This document shows, piece after piece, positions 49,442-64,000 of a stretch of DNA of 64,000 nucleotides. Under the pieces are notes generated by a model that was not told the DNA's origin, made no database searches, and worked only from the letters and a program-made list of their open reading frames with translations. Made by a program: the position numbers and the translations under genes. This DNA comes from Xanthomonas hydrangeae (lineage in GTDB: Bacteria > Pseudomonadota > Gammaproteobacteria > Xanthomonadales > Xanthomonadaceae): the NCBI GenBank assembly GCA_905142475.1, contig LR990730.1:2976001-3040000 (forward strand), given 5' to 3'. Each line of letters begins with the position of its first letter. The first letter of the stretch is position 1.

Positions 49442-49930
49442 TCAGCCAAGCACCTGCGGATTGAGCTGCCACACCGAATAGTTCAACGCCGCCGCAAAAC
49501 TCACCCACAGCAGATACGGAACCAACAACCACGCAGCAACCCGTTGCCACTTGGCAAACGCCACGATCGTCAGCACCAATGCCACCCACAGCGCCACGAT
49601 ATCGACAAACGCCCAGGCGCCCATGTGCCAGGCAAAGAACAACCAGCTCCACAACCCGTTCAACCCCAACTGCAGCACGAACAGACTCAGCGCCGCACGC
49701 GCACTGCTCCACCCACCGCGCCGCCAGACCAACCACACCGACACCGCCATCATCCCGTACAACGCGGTCCATACCGGCCCGAACAGCCACCCGGGCGGCG
49801 CCTAGGCCGGCCGCTGCAACTCGGCGTAGAAGCTCGCCGCTTCAATAGACGCCATCGCTCCCAGGGCCGCCACCAGATAGCAGAGCATCAGCGAACCCAG
49901 CAGTCCAAGCCACTGCGATTTCTTCGTCAT
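49442..49930 (-). pseudogene. tspO: TspO/MBR family protein with internal amber codon
   Basis: Read through, the 162-codon gene encodes a five-helix TspO: MTKKSQWLGLLGSLMLCYLV, ASFYAELQRPA, then stop, then APPGWLFGPVWTALYG, and later LNGLWSWLFFAWH and YLLWVSFAAALNYSVWQLN. Codon 43 is TAG (49804-49802) where the family has the conserved Trp of the RPxWAPPGWLF motif, so one base change (TGG to TAG) explains it. The frame is otherwise intact on both sides. A second start (Met at 49762) could yield only helices 3-5. A sequencing error is possible. Confidence 0.85.
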
Positions 49931-50042: not shown

Positions 50043-51032
50043 TCATGGATGGATCAACTTTACGGGAGGCTGACACGGTTGCAGGTCGTTGCCTGCCAAT
50101 ATCACCAGGTCCTTGCCTGTGGTGACGGAGACAGCATCGCCACCGCGCAGCAAGCCATTGTCGTTGCGCAAGGCGCTGGGCGTGAGACTGAGGTTGTTGC
50201 CTGCGATCAACGCCGCGCTGCCATCGGCCTGCACGCGGGTGCCGGTCAGCGTCATGTCGTTGCCGGCGAATAGTTGCAGGGTGTTACTGGCGCTGATGCC
50301 GGACAGGATGCCGACACCGTTGACGGCCTTGGATGCTTCGCTGACCAGGTTGTTGCCGGCAACCAACGCCACATCGCGGCCCTGGATCTGGCCCTGGTTG
50401 AGCAGGTCGTTGCGCGCTTCCAGGGCCACGCTGCCGGTGCCGCTGATGCGGCCCTGGTTGAGCAGGTTGCCGGCGGTGATGCTGACATCGGCACCCGCGA
50501 TGACGCCCTGGTTGCTCATGGCGTTGGTGGCATTGAGCTCGACATTGCCGCCGGCGATCAAGGCGCCATTGCCACGCAACTGCAGCGAGTTGGAGGCCAG
50601 ATACACGACCGGCACCAGCACCTTCTGGCCCTGGTAGTCCTGCTCCACCATCCACACGATGTCTTGCGTGAGCGCGGCAGCCTGCGCGGCCGTCAGGCCG
50701 ACGCCCATGCTTAGCTGCAGCTGCCCTGCGGCCGCGACGCCGGATTCCAGCAGGGCGCGGTACTGCGCCACGCCATCGGCGTAGTTGCCCAGATAGCGGC
50801 GGCCGGTGAGCTGGGTGATCTGATCCAGCACCAAACGCTGCTCATAGAAGCCATCGCCCAGGCGGGTCTGGGTCCACTCCGGGTCCACGCCCAGCTTGTC
50901 CAGCAGGAAGTCGCTGCTGATGAAGTTGTCGTAGTTGACGAAGCGCGGATCGGTCTCGATCAGGTAACGGCGGCCCGGGCCGTTGCTACGCCAGGCGTTG
51001 ATGCCACCAAGGCCGGTTGCTGCGCGACCCAT
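50043..51032 (-). pseudogene. Orphan fragment of the CdiA/FhaB exoprotein
   Basis: This 329-residue frame (MGRAATGLGGINAWRSNGPGR, RYLIETDPRFVNYDNF) is nearly identical to an internal piece of the giant gene at 53993-64000. It has neither the TPS secretion domain nor a toxin end, and after NDLQ it runs into unrelated sequence and stops. It is a duplicated remnant rather than a functional gene. Its DNA match extends over 50078-51050. Confidence 0.85.
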
Positions 51033-51050
51033 TGCGGTGCGATCGGTGCC
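50078..51050. repeat. 0.97-kb direct repeat, copy 1 (orphan copy)
   Basis: It matches 57535-58507 at a constant offset of 7457 bases with only scattered substitutions where sampled by eye (about 95% or more). Both copies are in the same orientation. The left boundary is at GTTGCAGGTCGTTGCC and the right boundary at GCGGTGCGATCGGTGCC. Confidence 0.9.
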
Positions 51051-51279: not shown

Positions 51280-52191
51280 TTAAGGACGAAATGGCTCACT
51301 CCAATCGCTGAAGTCAAATTGACCCGGTTTGCGGCGCAATACATGAGCGCAATAACGATCTATCGCATCCTCCGGATTACGCAACACGCGTAAATTTTCA
51401 ACATCCCCTTCATGGACATGGTAGACCACCTGATCCTGACGGGTCGAGCAAACGAAGAATTGATCTCCCTCTGGACCACCGACGCCTACCGGCCTCGTAT
51501 CCAAAAAGCATCTAAACTTAATTCTTTTTACGCCATTTATATTCGTCACTGCATCAGGGAATAATTCTTTTATTTTCGGTAAATACTTCTTTTTCCACCC
51601 TTTACCCAGGCTATCCAAATAAGTATCCGCATCCCGCCACCTTGATGAAGGATGCCCAATCAACTGACGATTGGTCATAGGACCTTCACCTACACTTCCT
51701 GGAATACGCCATCCGTCGGTTCGCCACAACCAGGACTTCGCCAAGCCATCCGGCAAGCTGAGCAAAGAACCGAAGCAGTCGTTACCGTCCTCGTAAGTCG
51801 AGCTTGGGAACGTTGCGAAGACTTCCACCATCCTACCATGCACCTCTAGAAATAAAATTGGCCGAACCATCGGAGGACCTCCTGGGTTCCTCAAATCCTC
51901 GATTAACATAACACCGAGCAACAATGGCTCCGCAGCTTCTTGAAAAGCTTGATAGGAGTTCGGCTGGAGCAGCCGCAAAGGCTCTAGAGTCCAATTCTTA
52001 CCATTTAAAAGCAACCCAGAATAGTCGACATTCCTATATCCAGCACCGTCTCGCTCATGCAAAAAATTATATTTATCACAAATACCATCCACATCAGAAT
52101 AAATACCCCCATTGAATTCCAAAATAAACTCATCTTTGAAGACACCCATCAACTCCCATGACCGATCGCTTCGACCCGACAAATTCTTCAT
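51280..52191 (-). CDS. Candidate immunity protein to the HNH toxin
   Basis: This 303-residue cytosolic-looking protein starts MKNLSGRSDRSWELMGVF, with no signal peptide or membrane segment. Aromatic and acidic residues are frequent, and I recognise no family. Its ATG directly follows the toxin stop (TAAATG) with no gap, the arrangement seen in contact-dependent inhibition loci where cdiI follows the cdiA C-terminus. Base composition is clearly more AT-rich than the housekeeping genes nearby, consistent with horizontal exchange of toxin-immunity cassettes. At 303 residues it is long for an immunity protein, so the role is inference. Confidence 0.65.
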   Translation of the reverse strand: MKNLSGRSDRSWELMGVFKDEFILEFNGGIYSDVDGICDKYNFLHERDGAGYRNVDYSGLLLNGKNWTLEPLRLLQPNSYQAFQEAAEPLLLGVMLIEDLRNPGGPPMVRPILFLEVHGRMVEVFATFPSSTYEDGNDCFGSLLSLPDGLAKSWLWRTDGWRIPGSVGEGPMTNRQLIGHPSSRWRDADTYLDSLGKGWKKKYLPKIKELFPDAVTNINGVKRIKFRCFLDTRPVGVGGPEGDQFFVCSTRQDQVVYHVHEGDVENLRVLRNPEDAIDRYCAHVLRRKPGQFDFSDWSEPFRP

Positions 52192-52563
52192 TTACTTTCC
52201 TTTTAACGCATTATTATCATCAATAATCTTTGAAACTTTCATCCGAAAATCTTGCTGCGCCTCTTCCAAGTACATCTTGTACCTTTCACTAACCGGCTTT
52301 CCATTCCACGTCATCCACCCCGCACCCTCGGCCTCTACCTTACACCCCTTTGAACAGTTCGCTGATTTGATCATTGGCTGCAGATTCGCAGGGTCTTTCA
52401 GAATCTCATTCTGAACGCTTTTTGGCAAAGAATCAAAACCTTCAATTTGCCGAATAGCATTTTGTGGCAGGACGTGATCCACATGAATTTTAGCCGTTGC
52501 AGGAACTGCTTCCTTCGCACCAGTCAGTGGATTGATCCAAGTCAGCTCATTCTTGGCATTCAT
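52192..52563 (-). CDS. Detached C-terminal HNH-type nuclease toxin domain of the CdiA-like protein
   Basis: From an internal ATG, 123 residues are open. The centre is an HNH-like core: AKIHVDHVLPQNAIRQ, then DPANLQPMIKSANCSKGCK, giving the D-H, N-L-Q and N-x-x-K-G pattern of HNH endonucleases. Excising the IS upstream restores the frame NGQVIS-STWMNAKNELTWINPL, so this is the native C-terminus of the giant exoprotein. In its present state it lacks a secretion domain and would act in the producing cell if translated. It is followed at zero distance by the candidate immunity gene. Confidence 0.8.
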   Translation of the reverse strand: MNAKNELTWINPLTGAKEAVPATAKIHVDHVLPQNAIRQIEGFDSLPKSVQNEILKDPANLQPMIKSANCSKGCKVEAEGAGWMTWNGKPVSERYKMYLEEAQQDFRMKVSKIIDDNNALKGK

Positions 52564-52577
52564 CCAAGTACTACTAA

Positions 52578-54023
52578 TCCTACTGTGTCATAAAAATGTT
52601 ACTCTGCAGGCAATCCACACCGCGCTGAGATGAACATGGCCGCAGTCAGTCCCCAAGCGCGTTTTTCCGCCTATCTGGATGACCTATCCGCTGCGCTTGG
52701 TCATGCTGACCGCGCGGCGAGCTTAGACGGTTATTGCCGGGGATTGATGCTGCCGTTGGAGCGCAAAAGCGTGGAGCCGCTGGCGGCGCATGTGGATCCG
52801 CTGCGGACCCGGGCTCGACATCAAGCGTTGCACCATTTCGTGGCCAAGTCGGATTGGTCCGATGCGGAGGTGCTGGAGCGCGTCCGTCAGTACGTCTCAT
52901 CGCATATGGATTTGAAGGGCGAGGTGTACTGGATCGTGGACGACACGGGTTTTCGCAAGAAGGGCAAGCATTCGGTCGGTGTGGCCCGACAGTACTGCGG
53001 GGAGATCGGCAAACAGGACAACTGCCAGGTGGCGGTGAGCGTCTCGCTGGCGACGCCGGCGGCGAGCGTGCCGATCGCCTTTGGGCTGTATCTTCCTGAG
53101 GCTTGGGCGACCGATGCGGCGCAGCGGGAGAAGGCCGGTGTTCCGGAAGAGATCGCCTTCGCCACCAAGCCAGAGATAGCGCTGGCGCAGATGCAGGCCG
53201 CGTGTGCTGCAGGTGTCGTTCGCGGCACCGTGTTGGCCGATGCAGCCTATGGCAGCAATACGGCTTGGCGTGATGCGCTGACTGCCTTGGAACTGACTTA
53301 TGCAGTGGGGATTGTTTCGAGCGTCAAGGTCTGGCCGCCGGGGCAAACGCCCGAGCCGCCCGCGCCTTGGAAGGGGCAGGGCCGTCCTGCGATTCGTCAT
53401 CGCCGCACGGCTGATCGCCAGCCACAGTCGGTGGAGGCACTGGCGCAGTCCTTGCCTCGGCGTGCCTTCCAGACGGTGTCATGGCGGGAAGGCAGCAACG
53501 CAGCGTTGTCCGGACGCCTTGCTGCCCTACGCGTGCGTGCCGCGCAGGGGGATCGTTTACGCCAGGAGGAGTGGCTGTTAATCGAATGGCCCGAAAACGA
53601 AGACAAGCCAACGCGCTATTTCCTCTCCAACTTGCCGGCAAACACGCTCTGCAAGGATCTGGTGAATACGGTCAAAGCGCGCTGGCGGGTTGAACGCGAT
53701 TATCAGGACCTGAAGCAAGAGTTTGGCCTGGATCACTACGAAGGACGCGGTTGGCGGGGGTTTCATCATCACGCCACGCTATGCATTGCTGCTTACGGGT
53801 TTCTGGTTGCTGAGCGCTTGCGTGGAGCGCATCAAAAAAAACCGTCACAACGCCCGCAACCTGCCCTACCCGAAGATTACCGCCCGCGCGGGGCGGCCGA
53901 TGCGGGCTCAGCGCCATGTAGTGGACTCGATCGCGACGCTGCGCTGGACAATCGCCGTAGAAATCGCAGTGACACTACTTGGACAGATGCTTCTACACCT
54001 TCGCATTTAATGACACAGTAGGA
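52578..54023 (+). mobile_element. IS701-family insertion sequence, 1446 bp, with CTAA target duplication
   Basis: The left end begins TCCTACTGTGTCATAAAAATG, and the complement of the right end begins TCCTACTGTGTCATTAAATG: 14 identical terminal bases, then a close match. CTAA flanks it directly on both sides (52574-52577 and 54024-54027), fitting the 4-bp YTAR target typical of IS701 members. It carries one transposase gene and interrupts the CdiA-like gene near its 3' end. Confidence 0.88.
52630..54021 (+). CDS. IS701-family transposase
   Basis: This 463-residue DDE transposase has an N-terminal helical domain, first Asp in WIVDDTGFRKKGKHSVGVARQ, second Asp in GTVLADAAYGSNTAWR, and a late Glu in RWRVERDYQDLKQEFGLDHYEG. 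The last 50-60 residues (after PALPEDYRPRG) read AADAGSAPCSGLDRD, whereas the +1 frame gives RPMRAQRHVVDSIATLRW, the usual family tail. An extra G in GGGG near 53890 may therefore have shifted the frame. The ORF ends inside the right terminal repeat. Confidence 0.88.
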   Translation: MNMAAVSPQARFSAYLDDLSAALGHADRAASLDGYCRGLMLPLERKSVEPLAAHVDPLRTRARHQALHHFVAKSDWSDAEVLERVRQYVSSHMDLKGEVYWIVDDTGFRKKGKHSVGVARQYCGEIGKQDNCQVAVSVSLATPAASVPIAFGLYLPEAWATDAAQREKAGVPEEIAFATKPEIALAQMQAACAAGVVRGTVLADAAYGSNTAWRDALTALELTYAVGIVSSVKVWPPGQTPEPPAPWKGQGRPAIRHRRTADRQPQSVEALAQSLPRRAFQTVSWREGSNAALSGRLAALRVRAAQGDRLRQEEWLLIEWPENEDKPTRYFLSNLPANTLCKDLVNTVKARWRVERDYQDLKQEFGLDHYEGRGWRGFHHHATLCIAAYGFLVAERLRGAHQKKPSQRPQPALPEDYRPRGAADAGSAPCSGLDRDAALDNRRRNRSDTTWTDASTPSHLMTQ

Positions 54024-57000
54024 CTAATGACCTGACCATTTAGCCAGAGCGTTTCGTCAGCCGCCTTCGCCAGAGGGCGCAACAGGGGACCAACTGTTTT
54101 TCCTACAATTGTCGGCATCGCCGCAAGAGCGATGCTCGTGCCGGCAGCCTGGGTGTCGCCTTGTGCAATATTACGGATGATGCCTGCCGCCATCCCTACA
54201 TCACCGGTAAACGTCTCGAGCATGGCCACACCGTCCGACCCACGCGTCGCAGTAGACCAAGCCAACAGCTCGCTCTGATATACCTGCTGCAAGGAGTCCT
54301 TCGCTATTCCAGATGCGCCAAGAGCGTTATATACCTCGCGGAATTGATCCGGATTCTTCGTAAGAAGATTTCCATACTGGTGGAAATTGGCATACTCGTC
54401 ATCAGTTGCTTTAAAGGCCTGACCCCACTTGTATTCATTTTTATTGGAATTCAGAAAAGCTAGCGCTTCTGTGTCGATATTTTCGATACCGACCTTCTTT
54501 GCGATCACTGAATCCACTTGCGCCGCAGCTTCCACCGTCAGACGCTGCTTCGCTTCACTGACACTGATGCCTTCCTGTAATGCAAACGCTTCAGCGTTCT
54601 GGCGAATCCATGTCACTTCATCAGGATGCAACTGCCGATTGAACTGATCTCCCGCCAGCGCGGTTGTTGCGCCAACCTGTCCCCCCGCAATACCACCAAG
54701 CGCCGCACTTCCTAGCTCCATGAGTGCGTTGTAAGTGGCTGGGTCGGTAACGCCGTTCTTGACCAAATAATCCGACATCGCAACCTTGGCTGCTTCAGCA
54801 CCCGCTGCACCAGCTGCTGTTTGCAGAACGTCTTCGCCGCCGAGTGCCGCAATCGCCGCACCTGTCAGGCCATGCAGCAAAATCTTGTTCGTACCCCCAT
54901 CGCTCCATGCGTCCAGACGTGCCAGTGCCTGAGCTTTCGACGCTTCATCCGGTGCGCTGGCCAAATCAAGCTGGGCTTTCTGATACATAGCCGAGGCAAC
55001 ATCACCCGCTATCCGAAATCCAATCTCTCCAGCAAGCCCCATCAGCTCTTTCTGATCATTGATCTTTTTCTGATCGAAAATCTCCTTCAGCCCAGACTGC
55101 TGCAACTCGGTGGCACTGCGATCCAACCCTGCCAGCGTAGACTCGTCGCCATTGCGGATTTGGATCGTGCCAGCCGCGATATCGCTCTTGGTCGTGCTAC
55201 TTGAGCTGTCGCTGGCATTGCCCAACATGCTCAGTCCGGCACCGATGCCGACACTGGCCATGCTGCTACCTGTGCCGCCGGCAACTGTCACACCGCTGGT
55301 CTTGTACTCCGCCTTGTTTTGGAGGTCCTCGACGGTCAGGCTGCCGGTTGACAGCCGATTGAGGCTGGAATCGGCTGCACTGGCTATCGCGCCGCCGACC
55401 AACTTTGTGTTACCGCCCACAGTGATGTCGAAGCCACCATTGCCAGCCTGGATGCCGCTCTGCTCGGTCACGCTGGTGTAGCTGCTGTTGACCTTCTGCT
55501 GGCTATAGCTGCCGCCACTGCCCGAGCCGGTCGCCAGGGTCAGACTGGCCTGCTGTTGTTTGCTCTTGTACTCGTTGGTGTCCTGCTCGCTCTTGATCAG
55601 CAGATCGCCGCCGACATTCGCCAGGACCTTGTTGCCAACAGCTTGTGCACCTTGGATCGTAGTGTCGTTGCCGCTCACCAAGGTCAACGTGTCGTTGGCA
55701 GTGACCACGCTTTCTGCGCGAAGATCGCTATTACCCTTGGCGCTGCCCTTGCCTGCCGACACTGTCAGATAGTAGCCAGTCGTTGCACCGACGCTGACAC
55801 CAATCTCACCGCCAGCGTTCTTGTTCTCGGACTTAGTGGTGTTGGTCTCCTGATTGCTGAGCAGGTTGAGATTGTTTGCTGCGGCCAATGCCACGTTGTT
55901 ACCGGCAATCTTGCTGCCGATGACATTGAGATCGCCGTCGGTGGCTGCAATGGTGACATTGCCGTTGCTGAGGATACGGCTGCCCCCGGTGCTTTCTTCA
56001 TGTGTGCTGGTCTTGCTTGACGAACTGCTCGCACCAATGCCGAGACGAAAGCTCATGCCAGTTGCGGCACCTGCCCCTTCAAGTCCACTCGCTGGCTCTT
56101 TGCCAGGTTTTGCCACATTGCCACCGACCGCTTGACCTTGATAGCCAGCCAAGAAATTGTCTGGTGTTGTTTTGGCTTGATCGACCGTCGCACCTGTCGC
56201 GTAAGCAGCACGCGCCGCATAGAGCGCTTTCAACCTATCGTCGTCCACATCGGAAATTCGCTTGGCGGCACCATAGGCCGCCAATGCGGTATCGACGACG
56301 CCACCACTGATACCCAAAGTAATGCCCGCGCTCTGCTGCTTGGACGTCTGCACCGTATCTACGGTATTTTCCGCTGCGGCAATCGTGACTTCCTTACCCA
56401 CGATCGTGGTGCCGGTGGCGCTCAGCACATCGCTACCGGTGATGGCCACCTTGTTGCCGGCGGTCATCGTCACCGACCCATCGGTACTGCCGACCAGGCT
56501 GCCGTTGTTGGTGACCTCAGTGACGTCCAGGCCGTCGGTCTTTTTGGTGACGCCCAATGCGACGCTGAATCCGCCACCGCCATATAGGCCGGACTTCTTG
56601 ACGGTCTTTTCGTGTTCCTCGCTGTGCGTGTTCTGCACCGTGTCCAGCGTCAGGTTGTTGCCGGCGGCCAACACCACATCGCCGGTGCTGGCGACCTGTG
56701 CGCCTTGCGACAGCAGATCATTACCCGCCGCGATCTGCACCGTGTCGCCACTGAGCGTGGTGGTGACCGCCACGTTGTCGTGCCACTCATCATGCGTGGT
56801 GGTCGTCTTGCTCGAGAACGTGCCCTTCTTCTTCTTGGTCATGTCCTGCACGGCATCGTGCTGCTCGCTGGCGGCGAGCAGGTTGACGTCGTTGCCGGCG
56901 GCCAGGGTGATGCCGCCTTCCTTGGTGGCGACTGTGGCAGCGGTGAGGTTGATGTCGTTACCGGCCTGCATCGCCAGATTGCCGCCGGCACTGAACTCGG

Positions 57001-60000
57001 TGCCGTGGACGGTTTCGTCGCTGGTCGTTGTGGTCTGCTTGAAGCGCTTGCGCGTTTCTAGTGTGTTGCTGGTGTCCACCGTGGTCAGCGTGCTGGCGTT
57101 GATGTCGTTGCCGGCGCTGATGCCGAGGCCCTTGCCGGCGTCCAGCTTGGCCGCGACCAAGTTGACGTCGTTGCCGGCGCTGAGGATCAGGTTGCCGCCG
57201 GCAGTGAGTGCCTGCTGGTCGATGGTTTGCGTGGTTGTGGTGGTGGTGACGCGGGTCTTGCCGTTGCGGGTCTTGTAGCTGTTAGTTTCGCTCTCGTTGA
57301 GCACCGATTCGACATTGAGGTTGTTGCCGGCTGCGGCGATCAGATCACCGCCTGCCTTGACTTCGGCCTGGCGGATAGTCAGGTCGTTGCCGGCGGTGAG
57401 TTGCAGGCTGTCGCCGGTGCTGATGTTGGTACGGGCAGCGACCTTGCCGTCGAGACCAGTGGTCGGGGTCAGCGAGAGGTTGTTGCCTGCCTGCAGCGCG
57501 GCGCTGCCGCCGGCCTTGATGGTGACGCCGTGCAGTTGCAGGTCGTTGCCTGCCGAGACCACTAGGTCCTTGCCTGTGGTCACCGACACGGCATCGCCAC
57601 CGCGCAGCAAGCCGTTGTCGTTGCGCAACGCGCTTGGGGTAAGGCTGAGGTTGTTGCCTGCGATCAACGCCGCGCTGCCATCGGCCTGCACGCGGGTGCC
57701 GGTCAGCGTCATGTCGTTGCCGGCGAACAGTTGCAGGGTGTTGCTGGCGGTGATGCCGGACAGGATGCCAACACCGTTGATGGCCTTGGATGCTTCGCTG
57801 ACCAGGTTGTTGCCGGCCACCAGCGCCACATCGCGGCCCTGGATCTGGCCCTGGTTGAGCAGGTCGTTGCGGGCTTCCAGGGCCACGCTGCCGGTGCCGC
57901 TGATGCGGCCCTGGTTGAGCAGGTTGCCGGCGGTGATGCTGACGTCGGCGCCTGCGATGACGCCCTGGTTGCTCATGGCGTTGGTGGCGTTGAGCTCGAC
58001 GCTGCCGCCGGCGATCAAGGCACCGTTGCCGCGCAACTGCAGCGAGTTGGAGGCCAGATAGACCACCGGCACCAGCACCTTCTGGCCCTGGTAGTCCTGC
58101 TCCACCATCCACACGATGTCCTGCGTCAACGCGGCGGCCTGCGCGGCGGTCAAACCCACGCCCATGCTCAGCTGCAGCTGACCTGCGGCCGCGACGCCGG
58201 ATTCCAGCAGGGCGCGGTACTGCGCCACGCCATCGGCGTAGTTGCCCAGATAGCGGCGGCCGGTGAGCTGGGTGATCTGATCCAGCACCAAACGCTGCTC
58301 ATAGAAGCCATCGCCCAGGCGGGTCTGGGTCCACTCCGGGTCCACGCCCAGCTTGTCCAGCAGGAAGTCGCTGCTGATGAAGTTGTCGTAGTTGACGAAG
58401 CGCGGATCGGTCTCGATCAGGTAACGGCGGCCCGGGCCGTTGCTGCGCCAGGCGTTGATGCCGCCAAGGCCGTTGGCGGCGCGGCTCATTGCGGTGCGAT
58501 CGGTGCCGGTGCCGCTGGAGAGGCGATATAGCCCGCCAATGGGCAGATCGATCTGCGTCAGCGAGGTTTGCGCGCCGCCAACAATATTGGTCACAGGAAT
58601 GCTGGCCAGGTCAACGCGGGTGCGGCTTTCGTTCGCACCTGCAACAACGCCGGTGCCAGCAGCGGTGGTCTGCACGTTTGCCTGATCGACAGTGCTGTGC
58701 ACAAGCCCGCTGTCGTTGGACATCACCGGTGCCACCGACATCTTGACGATGCCGCCCGATGTGGCAAGCGTTGCGTCCTGCGTATTGGCGCCGACTTGGG
58801 TGCCTGCGCTACCGGCAGTACCGGTGGCCACACTGATGCCGGACGCGCCGCCGTTTGCACGGCCGATCACTGCTTGACCGCCAACTCCACCGGCGCTTTG
58901 CGTGGTGCGCCCGTTCAACCCACCTTGTGCACCAACGCCAGTGAGTGAGGCGCCGCTGATGCTGCGACCATCGCTGCCGACGGCGCCGTTGCTGATGTTG
59001 GCACCGTTGATGCTGACGCCTTGGCCGCCGGTCATGCTCGCACCTAGCGCAAGGTAGCTGCTATCCAAGGTGCCAGAGCCCACGACGCGCTCATCGGTTT
59101 CCCAATAGCAGACGACGCTCTGGCCGGGCCGCTGCATGCAGTCGTTATAGACTGCCCTAGCTGTGTATTCGGTATCTGTGTAATCAGCTACCTGCTTTAG
59201 CGCCAATGCTTGATTCAGCACGTCATCGCTGCTCGCAAGCATTCCGTCTGACAAACCTCCGACGCCACGTTGATTCACCAGCAGCGCGCCTGCCGCGGCT
59301 ACCGTCGACGCGTTATTGATCACATAGCCCGACAAACCGATATTTCCGCCTGCTGCAATACGTCCTTCTGCACTGGCCGAAATTAACTGCTCACGCTCGC
59401 GCACGTTATAAGTGCGATAAACGCCAGGATCATGACCCGCATAACGGACACCGCCAGCGCCCGAAGTGCCGGGTCTCGGATCTCGTCTAATGACATCCTC
59501 AGGCATTGCCGCATTGGCCGCAGCCCGCTCTGCATCTGTTAGCGGTCCAGTTTTAGCATCGACTACGCGCCGTCGATTATTCAACTGCCCAGCCGCGATC
59601 AAAATATTCCCATCCGCCTCAATACTGCCCGACAGGTTATTCACCACACCCGTACGCGCTACCAACGTACCGCCGCCATCCTGCGCGCCACCGACGGCGA
59701 TATTGCCCAGGCTGAAGATGCGCGCGTCGCGGTTAAGCAGCTGATCGCGCACGATCAGGTTCATGTTGCCGGTGGAGCCGAGCAAGGCAGAGCCATAGGC
59801 AGCATTGCCCGTAGCACCACCGAAATCTGCACCGTTGACCAAAGTGCCGGTATTCACCGAGACATTGCCGCCGACGATGCTGCCGGTGTTGTTGATGCTG
59901 TTGGCCACCAGCGACAGTGCGCCATTGCCGGAAATACTGCCGGCATTGTCGATGCTGCTGCCATTGAGGCGAGTGTCGTTGGACAGGATGCTCGCGCCGG

Positions 60001-63000
60001 CGCGGTTGGTGATGCTGCCAGCCGTAATATCCAGGGTGCGCGCAGCCTTGAGCGTGGACTCGTTGACCAGACTCCCGCCCACGCGCAGGTTGAAATTCCC
60101 GTTGCTGGTGAGGTCAGCACCTGCGCGATGCGTGTAGTCGCTACGCAAGGTCAGATCCAGCAGATTCTGCGCAAGAATGCTGCCGCCGCCATCGAAGCCG
60201 ACGGTATCGATCACCACATCGCCAGCACCACCGGTCGCGCTGCCGGCACCGATCTGACCACCGGCATTGCTCAGGTTCTGCAGATTCAGGCGGACAGCCT
60301 GCTCGGCCTTGATCCTGCCGTTCTGGTTGTCCAGCGTGGCGCCTGCGCGTTGCAACAGAAAGCTCGCGCCGGCATAGACATTGCCGCCCTGGTTGTTCAA
60401 GCCGTTGGTATTGGCGATGAGATCGCCACCAGCAACCAGCTGGCCGCCGTTGTTGGCAATGCGGGCGGCATCGATGACCACGCTGCCGCGCCCACCGAGA
60501 TTGCCGCTGGTGTTGGTCAGGGCCCCGCCCGTGGTGATGCGCGTCAGTCCGCCACCGTTGTTGACGATGCTGCCCTGGGTATTGTCGATGAGGCCGCCCG
60601 ATGCGGTCAGCGTGTTGCCGGCATCGAGCTGGCCGCCGCTATTGAGCAGCGCACCGGTGACGACAACGTTGAGATCGCGCCCCGCACTGAGCTTGCCGCC
60701 TTGGTGATTGTCCAGCTGGCCGCGTGCGGTGACGCTGAGGTCGCGTCCGGCTTGCAGGCTGCCGCCGGCACTGCTGAGATTTTCTGCCGTGATCACTGCA
60801 TCGGTGCTGGCACCAATGGTGCCGTTGCCATTGTCCAGGCCGCGGTTGAGATCCACGCGCAAGCTGCCGCCCGCGCCCGCATTGGCAACTGCCTGCACGG
60901 TACCGCCTGCATTGCTGAGACTGTCGGCGCGCAAGGTTAGCGCGCCACCACTGGCCTGCAGCAAGCCGTTACGGTTGTCGACTGCGCCAGTGCTTTGCAC
61001 GCTCAATCCACGTGCGGACACCGAACCACCGACGTTATTGAGGCCGGCAGCAGTCAACACTGCATCGCCCGCTGCGGCAATCGCGCCGCCCTGGTTGTTC
61101 AACACGCCGCTGGCGTCCAGGGTCAGTTGACCCTGGGTGAGGATGCGCCCACTGCCGTTGCCCAGCGCACTACGGCTGGTGACCGACAGGGCGCCGGTGC
61201 CGGCGTGTTCGATCCGCCCCTGCGCATTCTCCAGGCTGGCCGCAGCAATGGTCAGATCCTGCGCATTGCTGGCCAGCGTGCCGCCGGTGTTGTCGATCGC
61301 GCCGCCCATGCTGATGCGGGTCAGCCCGTTTCCACTTTGCACCAGTCGGCCGCCGACATTACTCAAGCTGCCGCCGTCGATGCTCAGCTGGTTGGCCTGC
61401 ATTTGACCTGCGACGTTGTTGAGACGCCCGTTGTCGATGTTGCCGCCTGCCTGCACGGTGAGCGTTCCACCAGCGAGCAAGTCGCCACCGCGATGATCGA
61501 GGTTGCCGCCGGTGGTCAGTGCAACATTGCCGGTGGCACGTGTGCTGGCACCCGCCAGTTGCAGCTGACTGCCCTGTGCGGTGAGGTTGCCGCCGGCCAG
61601 CAATTTGCCGGAGGCGCTGAGCTGGCGATCGGCGATCAGGCTCAGCGTGCGTCCGCTGCCCAGGCTGCCGTCTGCGTTGATACCGGCACCCACCGTGCCG
61701 GCGATGCTGATCTCACCCGCACGCAGGCTCAAGTTACCCGAGGCGGTGGTCTGCCCCGCATTCTCGATACGCGCACCCTGCAGACCCACCGTCGTACCGC
61801 TGACCGTGCCCTGTTGACGCAACACTGCATCGCTGGTCAAGGTGACCTGCTGAGCGCCGACCTGGCCGGCCACGCTCAAGTCGCCCTTCGAGCGCAATTC
61901 CAGCGTGCTGCCCGCGCTCAGGGTGCCGCTCTGTGCCAGCGTCCCATCGGCCTGCGCCAAGAAGCTGCCAGCCGATGCCAGGCTGCCGCCGAGCTGCAGG
62001 TCGCTGCGGCTGATCAATGCGACATCGCCACGCTCGCTGCCCAACTGGCCGCTGCTGCTGAGTTGCGCGGCTTCCACGCGCAAGCCGTTGCCGCCGATCA
62101 GGTCACCGCGATTGTCCACCGCTCCGGTGGCGATCACACCCAAGCGTTGCAGGCCATAGGCCTGCCCGGTCTGACGCAACGAACCGACACCCAATGTGAG
62201 TTGGTTGCCGGCACGGACGGCACCGGCATTGTCGAGCAAGCCGCCGATGGCGAAGGTGGCGTCGCCTTGCGCGAGCAAGACGCCGTTAGCGGCATTACTT
62301 GCGCTTGCTGCCGTAACGTTCAAGGTCTGACCAGCGACGACTTGCGCTGCGTTGGTCAAGGCGCCGGTTGCGCTCAGCACCACGTTGCGATCGGCTTGCG
62401 CCACACCGGCAACTGCCAGGTCGCCGGTGCTGCGCAGATTCAGATCAGTGGCTGCATCGAGTGCGCCACGGCTGTCGATCGACGCGCCATCCAGGCTGAT
62501 CGCGCCACCGCTCTGCAGCACTGCAGCCTGCCCGGTTGCAATACGCGCGCCGCGCAACGTGGCATTGCCTGCAGACACGGCCTGCCCGTTGAAGTTCAGT
62601 GTGCGTTGTGCCTGCAGATCGAGCTGGGTTGCCGACTGCAGCGTGCCTGCGGCGGTGAGATCGCGACCTGCCTGCAGCGCGATCGATTGCGCTTTGAGCG
62701 AGCCGGCCTGCTGCAGATCGCCAACCGCCGTTGCCTGCAGTGTGGTCGCTGCGGCGACAACGCCTTGCAGCGTCATATCGCCTTGGCTGGTCAGAGTGAC
62801 ACTGGCGGCTTCGCTCCCGAGCTGGCCGCTACTGCGCAAGGTGCCTGCCTCCACCAGCAGCGCATCCTTGGCGATGAGGTTGCCACGGTTGTCCAGTGTT
62901 CCAGTCACGGTTGCAGTCAATGCTTTGCCTGCGATGGCAGTCCCGCTCTGATCCATGCTCGCGGCGGTGATGCGCAGAACGCCGCCACTCTGCAGGCTGC

Positions 63001-64000
63001 CGGCGTTCTGCAGCGCGCCGGTACTCAGCGTGACGCTGCCATCGGCCGCCAACACACCAGCGGCCAGGTTATTGACGTTGCCGGCTTGCACCGACAGATC
63101 ACGGCCTGCAACGACCTGGCTCGCGTTGCTCAAGGTCGCGGCTGCGCTCAGCACAACATCACGATTGGCTTGCGCCACGCCTGCGAGCGCAAGACCACCC
63201 GTGCTACGCACACCCAGATCCGTAACGGCATCGAGCGTGCCGCGGCTGTCGATTGCCGCACCATCCAGGGTGATTGCGCCGACGCTTTTCAGCACGGCAT
63301 CGCGACTGGTGGCGATGGTGTTACCACGCAAGCTGGCGTCGGCACCGGCTTGTGCCTGACCGTTCAACGTCAAGGTGCGCTGCGCCTGCAGATCCAGCGT
63401 AGACGCGGACTGCAGCGTGCCACCGGCAGTGAGATCGCGGCCAGCCTGCAGCGTGACGGCCTGCGCGTTGAGCGAGCCGGCCTGCAGCAGGTCGGTACCC
63501 GCCGTTGCTTGCAGTGTGGTCTTCGCAGCCACAAGGCCTTGCAGATCGATATTGTTCTGGCTGGTCAGCGTCAGTGCGCCGTTGACCGAGCCCAGTTGCC
63601 CACTGCTGACGATGCTGTCGGCAGCGATGGTCAGGTCCTTGCCGGACACCAACTGGCCCGCGTTCTCGAATGCGCCCGTCGAAGTGATCGACACCGCGTC
63701 GCCGCTATAAACACGGCCGTGCTGCAGCAGGGCTCCGGTGTTCAGTGCAAGGCCACGTTCGCCATGCAGGCTGCCATTGTTTTCCAACACGCCAGCCACA
63801 TCGACACGCAGGTCGCGTAGCGCGCCCAAGGTCGCAGCCGTGGCGTTGTTGACAGTAGCCGCTTCCACACGCAGATCGCGCGCCGCGACGACTTGAGCGC
63901 CATTGTTCAATGCACCCGCAGCAGTCAGCGCAACATCGCGCCCGGCCTGGACCACGCCAGCCAGTGCAAGATCACCGTCACTGTGCACGTTCAAATCGGT
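53993..64000 (-). pseudogene. CdiA/FhaB-type filamentous haemagglutinin exoprotein, 3' end interrupted by IS, 5' end outside window
   Basis: An open frame of 3335 codons continues beyond the right edge. From the N-terminal side it shows hundreds of 20-residue FHA repeats (NNGAQVVAARDLRVEA type), then a non-repetitive block at about 59.5-58.5 kb with a few Cys and RYLIETDPRFVNYDNF, VVYLAS, then FHA-2 repeats (LTAGNDLTI, NDINLTAATV types), and a helical pre-toxin region ending NRQLHPDEVTWIR...DETLWLNGQVIS. The last nine codons (PTVSLNAKV) are IS sequence. The secretion (TPS) domain and any partner transporter lie outside. It is a two-partner-secretion adhesin or contact-inhibition protein now without its toxin. 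Confidence 0.9.
57535..58507. repeat. 0.97-kb direct repeat, copy 2 (inside the giant gene)
   Basis: This is the parent copy of the orphan segment at 50078-51050. It encodes the junction between the non-repetitive block (GINAWRSNGPGRRYLIETD) and the first FHA-2 repeats (VSVTTGKDLVVSAGNDLQ). Confidence 0.9.

What the first reader, a model, noticed from the sequence alone, without database searches (positions are those of the whole stretch)
52192..64000. An IS701 insertion has cut a CdiA-like exoprotein from its own toxin domain, and the junction can be rejoined exactly
Seen directly: the giant minus-strand frame reads ...NGQVIS and then nine codons of IS end before a stop. CTAA flanks the IS on both sides. 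Deleting the IS and one CTAA gives GTC ATT AGT AGT ACT TGG ATG, so the protein continues VISSTWMNAKNELTW into the HNH domain without a frame change. The strain therefore keeps an adhesin without its toxin tip. Whether the truncated protein still works as an adhesin, and whether IS excision restores it, are open questions.
Basis: seen in the sequence. Interest (0 to 1): 0.78.

Follow-up and report, generated by a model that had tools for sequence, protein, structure and literature searches.

The report
Jumping gene splits a broken toxin system
In this Xanthomonas genome a mobile element sits between the predicted delivery arm and the predicted DNA-cutting tip of a giant surface protein, and two further breaks in the same gene pair mean the strain likely can neither export the protein nor poison neighbours with it, although the predicted immunity gene beside it is still whole.

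Summary
A 1,446-bp IS701-family element (52578-54023, intact transposase, 14-bp perfect terminal repeats, CTAA duplicated) interrupts a minus-strand FhaB/CdiA-like frame. Uninterrupted natural relatives (an X. hydrangeae protein identical over both pieces; an X. hortorum pv. cynarae contig) read straight from the upstream piece into the HNH piece with three residues between, so the two were one protein. The genome holds one copy of the element, so a repeat misjoin is unlikely. Just outside the window the TPS-domain frame of tpsA ends after a 34-bp tandem duplication absent from the 7 nearest matches, and transporter tpsB stops right after its VRGF motif, its last ~90 codons lying in another frame. 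No second TPS exoprotein or tpsB match was found in the genome. What stays whole is a 303-aa ORF, the predicted immunity gene: it follows the HNH domain in 4 of 4 named loci and occurs in the same 2 of 35 genomes. IS-interrupted and decayed fhaB/cdiA loci are already in print; the tip resembles phage endonuclease VII, while its partner matched no family in four libraries. A new example of a known kind.

The parts
54024..64000 (-). 3' part of the tpsA (fhaB/cdiA-like) frame: filamentous haemagglutinin repeats and pre-toxin region; followed by 9 codons of IS end and a stop at 53993-53995. Lacks the TPS domain, which lies outside the window in another frame
   Evidence: open frame 53993-64000, 3335 codons; Fil_haemagg and Fil_haemagg_2 repeats, no TPS domain; 98.6% identical to P0005 residues 1221-4553
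54024..54700 (-). last 226 codons before the insertion: conserved pre-toxin start (NRQLHPDE) and predicted entry region, partly shared with TpsA proteins that carry other tips
   Evidence: matches in proteins with other C-termini end at residue ~153-162, 198 or 214, in other genus genomes at 171-175 or earlier; the last codon shares its third base with the IS end
52578..54023 (+). IS701-family insertion sequence, 1,446 bp
   Evidence: DDE_5 transposase; 14-bp perfect terminal inverted repeats; only copy in the genome; IS701-family names on some homologous plasmid records
52630..54021 (+). intact transposase ORF, 463 aa
52574..52577 (.). target duplication, copy next to the HNH side (CTAA on +)
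   Evidence: single copy in the empty site of L041
54024..54027 (.). target duplication, copy next to the exoprotein side (CTAA on +)
52192..52563 (-). cut-off C-terminal tip: 123-aa ORF with the predicted HNH / endonuclease VII-like nuclease domain
   Evidence: PHROG endonuclease VII, E=4.2e-6, residues 21-111; GmrSD_C below cut-off, E=0.0058, in 9 of 12 sequences; 26 invariant columns among 12 sequences in an alignment trimmed to this stretch; weak nuclease fold matches
51280..52191 (-). 303-aa ORF, predicted immunity gene, intact
   Evidence: follows HNH in 4 of 4 named loci; found with HNH in the same 2 of 35 genus genomes; 99.3% nucleotide identity to L041; no family in Pfam, NCBIfam, PADLOC or PHROGs
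50043..51050 (-). downstream fragment of tpsA without a toxin tip (ORF 50043-51032; homologous stretch 50078-51050)
   Evidence: 94.9% identical, ungapped over 973 bp, to tpsA 57535-58507; also present in L041

Best explanation
A 1,446-bp IS701-family element lies in an FhaB/CdiA-like exoprotein gene between its predicted entry region and its predicted HNH nuclease tip, and because the same gene pair is also broken near the start of tpsA and near the end of tpsB, the locus is likely a dead two-partner (contact-inhibition type) system next to an intact predicted immunity gene. Shown: the element, its duplicated CTAA, the empty site and continuous protein in relatives, the 34-bp tandem duplication, the truncated tpsB frame, the single copy of the element, the pairing of HNH with a ~300-aa ORF in relatives, and lower divergence of the tip/partner stretch than of its flanks. 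Inferred: in intact relatives TpsB exports TpsA and the HNH tip is delivered into neighbouring bacteria as a nuclease, with the ~300-aa protein as immunity. In this strain the TPS-bearing piece stays native for only about 1,064 residues, the long remaining piece has no secretion domain, the TpsB barrel lacks its last strands, and the tip stands alone without delivery, so neither adhesion nor killing by this protein is expected; the immunity gene may still protect against kin that carry the same tip. The order of the three breaks is not known.
For: IS anatomy and empty site. Continuity in natural relatives: P0005 100%/100% with 3 residues between; among the proteins, 11 others have a whole or nearly whole HNH match at the same spacing (3-4 residues between matches), and P0010 a partial one. 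tpsA frame break: TPS domain in ORF L003:2384-5728, aligned to P0005 1-1064, while the other frame picks up at P0005 1054; 34-bp tandem unit; 7 of 7 matches with at least 84% identity are 34 bp shorter there. tpsB: 521-codon open frame against 581-611 reported for 20 of 22 other genomes with a match of at least 80% identity; in 11 of 11 of these loci that I checked, the frame runs exactly 90 codons past the point where it stops here; the C-terminal ~92 residues, with GLDAG, lie in another frame here and the first frame ends 6 residues after VRGF. A review says the VRGY/F and F/GxDxG motifs pair by a salt bridge and that the loop bearing VRGY/F is essential (PMC5422565, passage). No other TPS exoprotein, no other tpsB match at E <= 0.001. 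Nuclease. Immunity. Cassette: 27 of 1692 against 123 of 1953 differences from L041. Tip diversity: up to 15 C-terminal types among 63 proteins.
Confidence: 0.78

Rival explanations
1. One reading: the strain still exports a full adhesin that lacks only its toxin tip. This needs the tpsA and tpsB frame breaks outside the window to be sequence errors.
For: The 3,325 codons of the frame in the window before the IS have no stop and are 98.6% identical to P0005, so any decay is recent; the tpsB break is small and next to an A5 run.
Against: A 34-bp perfect tandem duplication is not a typical error and shifts the frame; the neighbouring tspO also has an in-frame stop, which fits a decaying locus.
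Confidence: 0.12
2. The cut-off HNH ORF and the 303-aa ORF still act as a small stand-alone toxin-immunity pair inside the cell.
For: The 123-aa ORF starts with ATG and covers the domain as matched by endonuclease VII and by relatives; orphan toxin tips elsewhere are toxic when expressed (PMC3150448, passages).
Against: No promoter-like site at the IS end ahead of the ORF, and promoter-like sites in the region number 4 against 1.9 (sd 1.3) in shuffles; no evident ribosome site (read by eye); orphan tips usually lack translation starts, and the one examined did not appear to be made (PMC3150448).
Confidence: 0.05
3. The IS junction is an assembly artefact and the chromosome is really uninterrupted.
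For: No reads available.
Against: Single-copy element, both ends inside one 5.36-Mb contig, matching 14-bp ends, target duplication on both sides, empty site in a relative.
Confidence: 0.03

Closest known systems
XacFhaB/FhaC two-partner system of Xanthomonas (fhaB next to the pga operon)
   Same: Same place: PgaA-like gene on the tpsB side (L003:8077-10176) and a TspO gene on the other side, as described for X. arboricola (PMC12448352, passages).
   Different: Here both tpsA and tpsB frames are broken and the tip is cut off by an IS701-family element.
Transposase-interrupted FhaB of X. arboricola pv. juglandis and pv. corylina (PMC12448352)
   Same: Incomplete FhaB followed by transposases and a further haemagglutinin piece; the authors infer interruption by transposases (passages).
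   Different: IS5-family element named there for juglandis, IS701-family here; the passages seen do not discuss a toxin tip or immunity gene of that FhaB.
CDI loci with orphan cdiA-CT/cdiI modules (E. coli EC93, EC869; Poole 2011, PMC3150448)
   Same: Two-partner exoprotein, exchangeable C-terminal tip plus downstream ORF, extra cdiA fragments downstream (some without VENN or cdiI), IS-disrupted tips (passages).
   Different: No VENN motif; the interrupted tip is that of the main gene, not an orphan; the predicted immunity protein is long (303 aa).
HNH / endonuclease VII and GmrSD C-terminal nuclease domains
   Same: PHROG endonuclease VII E=4.2e-6; sub-threshold GmrSD_C match in 9 of 12 sequences; BrxU (GmrSD family) among weak fold matches.
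   Different: Below Pfam's curated cut-off; no significant Foldseek match; no NCBIfam or PADLOC family.

Membership tests
IS701 family | DDE transposase of the DDE_5 type | tested here: met
   E=2.1e-84, profile positions 2-271 of 272; some homologous plasmid copies are annotated IS701 family
IS701 family | terminal inverted repeats and 4-bp target duplication (YTAR preference is recalled) | tested here: met
   14-bp perfect ends, CTAA on both sides
CDI (CdiB/CdiA/CdiI) | TPS-domain exoprotein with FHA repeats next to a TpsB transporter | tested here: met
   domains present here but in separate frames; TPS and FHA domains in one frame in P0005
CDI (CdiB/CdiA/CdiI) | conserved body with exchangeable C-terminal tips | tested here: met
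   up to 15 types among 63 proteins by the last 90 residues; 8 of 71 judged truncated, rearranged or at a contig edge were left out, and a few singletons may be broken tips
CDI (CdiB/CdiA/CdiI) | cognate immunity gene directly after the tip | tested here: met
   by position only: ~300-aa ORF after HNH in 4 of 4 loci; same 2 of 35 genomes; neutralisation untested
CDI (CdiB/CdiA/CdiI) | VENN motif or one of its stand-ins at the tip boundary | tested here: inconclusive
   no VENN and no (E/Q)LYN in P0005; a review lists other motifs in other genera (PMC9086364, passage)
CDI (CdiB/CdiA/CdiI) | contact-dependent growth inhibition | not testable with these tools
   needs co-culture
HNH / endonuclease VII nuclease | family-level sequence match and conserved motif residues | tested here: met
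   PHROG endonuclease VII E=4.2e-6; D29, N60, N69, K72 invariant and H30 in 11 of 12 sequences (that these are the motif residues is recalled); Pfam GmrSD_C only below its cut-off
HNH / endonuclease VII nuclease | beta-beta-alpha-metal fold | tested here: inconclusive

The most novel reading that the evidence does not exclude
The HNH tip and its ~300-aa partner are an undescribed toxin-immunity family of Xanthomonadaceae two-partner exoproteins, and this strain is a 'disarmed but shielded' genotype: weapon lost by three separate hits, shield kept. Such loss is favoured mechanically because the tip cassettes are AT-rich islands packed with the YTAR words that such elements cut (8.5 and 5.9 per kb in the cassette against 1.6 in the exoprotein body and 1.0 in 1-49000 of the window), so mobile elements preferentially clip toxins off rather than destroy the whole gene.
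Probability: 0.3. Interest if true: 0.55.

Novelty: new member of a known kind. Interest (0 to 1): 0.33.

Why it matters
FhaB is usually discussed as an adhesin in plant-pathogenic Xanthomonas; this locus, with its natural relatives, shows a tip-plus-partner cassette that looks exchanged between lineages, as in contact-inhibition systems, and a strain in which the weapon is broken while the partner is kept. It warns that a long open frame within a 64-kb window need not be a working gene, and it offers a testable question: do strains that lost the tip stay immune to those that kept it?

Full report
What was checked. The finding covers 52192-64000, minus strand. The long frame ends ...NGQVIS + PTVSLNAKV + stop, the nine last codons being element sequence. 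The element spans 52578-54023 (1,446 bp); its first and last 14 bases are perfect inverted repeats and CTAA stands on both sides. Its plus-strand ORF (52630-54021, 463 aa) is a nearly full-length DDE_5 transposase match. It is the only copy found in the 5,578,501-base genome by DNA and by family, so a repeat-driven misjoin is unlikely. In the genus sample 9 of 35 genomes, this one included, have any match: mostly short or distant ones, pieces at up to 97% in G014 and ten copies at 79-80% in G020.

Was it one protein? Instead I compared each piece with natural uninterrupted relatives. Of 54 proteins found with the 226 residues before the insertion, P0005 (named X. hydrangeae, 4,672 aa) is 100% identical over those 226 and over the 123 residues of the HNH piece, with three residues between; ten others (P0006-P0009, P0011-P0016) have the same spacing, P0029 shows four residues between its two matches, and P0010 has the same spacing with a partial HNH match. 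The rest have other or no tips. In the genus sample the upstream piece over its full length, and the HNH piece, occur in the same 2 of 35 genomes; 8 more have only part of the upstream piece. The other of the two (G023, whose contig equals L041, X. hortorum pv. cynarae CFBP4188) has one open frame and a single TTAG at this point. In P0072 the HNH domain stands behind a largely different upstream region (no match at E 1e-3, a 30% match to residues 10-95), and its likeness to the others resumes near the first residues of the cut-off ORF, so the insertion lies close to the edge of a separately moving domain.

What the window does not show. The long frame opens only about 570 bases beyond the window (L003:2571). 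The TPS secretion domain is in another frame, L003:2384-5728. That frame matches P0005 residues 1-1064 and the other frame takes over at residue 1054; between them lies a perfect 34-bp tandem duplication. Orthologous DNA in 7 of 7 matches with at least 84% identity is 34 bp shorter. The transporter gene tpsB (ShlB and POTRA domains) has an open frame of 521 codons against 581-611 reported for 20 of 22 other genomes with a match of at least 80% identity; the two exceptions, G011 and G027, are split as well. Seven of the 20 have stops inside the matched stretch; in the four of these that I looked at, the stop lies at query residue 36, near its beginning, which leaves 567 codons, close to the 566 aa given for FhaC (PMC12448352). 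In all 11 relatives checked the frame goes on 90 codons past the point where it stops here. Here it ends six residues after VRGF, and ~92 residues including GLDAG lie in another frame. A review says these two motifs pair by a salt bridge and that the loop with VRGY/F is essential (PMC5422565, passage). I found no second TPS exoprotein and no second tpsB match in the genome. Adhesion and delivery through this protein are therefore unlikely. The 3,325 codons in the window before the IS contain no stop and are 98.6% identical to P0005, so the damage is recent; its order is unknown.

Cassette behaviour. Against L041 the stretch from about 54,315 to 51,178 (IS left aside) differs at 27 of 1692 positions and the flanks at 123 of 1953; the 100-bp bin 51177-51078, with 3 differences, was counted on neither side, and the flanking bins are uneven. 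Silent codon differences are 5 of 303 in the 303-aa ORF, 6 of 123 in HNH and 27 of 226 before the insertion. This fits exchange of tip and partner as a block between lineages. The limits were chosen after seeing the data. The lower limit falls close to the start of a tip-less tpsA fragment (50078-51050, 94.9% to tpsA 57535-58507). Among 63 of the 71 proteins there are up to 15 types of C-terminus; the other 8 I judged truncated, rearranged or at a contig edge, and a few of the singletons may be broken tips too.

Repeated loss. Of 13 cluster representatives at least 90% identical in the matched part of the upstream piece, P0064 stops at what is probably a contig edge; of the other 12, 8 have a whole HNH tip and 4 do not: P0010 (X. 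hortorum) and P0059 leave the frame inside HNH, P0044 and P0045 (X. arboricola pv. corylina) end earlier. These are representatives, not strains, and sequence errors were not excluded. Published precedents: fhaB interrupted by transposases in X. arboricola (PMC12448352, passages), fhaB in two frames in 'Xcv' (PMC3071791, passage), an fhaB remnant downstream of fhaB in X. fuscans (PMC3826837, passages), and a fha region missing from some X. oryzae strains (PMC2432079, passages). IS-disrupted cdiA tips and lone fragments are described for CDI loci (PMC3150448, passages), as is the idea that lone immunity genes are kept for protection (PMC9086364, passages).

Target words. YTAR words (target preference recalled; both copies of the duplicated site counted) occur at 8.5 per kb in 51280-52577 (G+C 0.458), 5.9 per kb in 54024-54700 (0.530), 1.6 per kb in 54701-64000 (0.630) and 1.0 per kb in 1-49000 (0.655). 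The AT-rich cassette is simply the easiest target. This is one insertion and a composition effect, so it is a hypothesis only.

Verdict. The case is a recent, multiply broken FhaB/CdiA-type system with its predicted immunity gene intact.

Noticed in passing
window 49468-49930 (-), stop at 49802-49804: The TspO gene next to the locus has an in-frame TAG where X. hortorum pv. cynarae (L041:3185-3820, TspO_MBR) has a tryptophan codon; a further decayed gene at this locus.
   Followed up: partly
G000:C1 about 3040467-3040534 (L003:2468-2535): 34-bp perfect tandem duplication in the 5' third of tpsA, absent from the 7 nearest matches; its stability was not tested.
   Followed up: partly
L043 11317-12970: Vulcaniibacterium tengchongense carries a second, orphan-like HNH piece plus ~308-aa partner directly after the first pair.
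   Followed up: no
P0010, P0059 (proteins): Two other sequences with the same tip allele leave the reading frame inside the HNH domain, suggesting repeated loss of this tip.
   Followed up: partly
window 52213-52242 (-): Weak promoter-like match (9 of 12) about 20 bases ahead of the 303-aa ORF; close to chance level in the scan.
   Followed up: no
G014, G020: Related IS701 elements are present in many copies or pieces in two other Xanthomonas genomes, while this genome has one.
   Followed up: no
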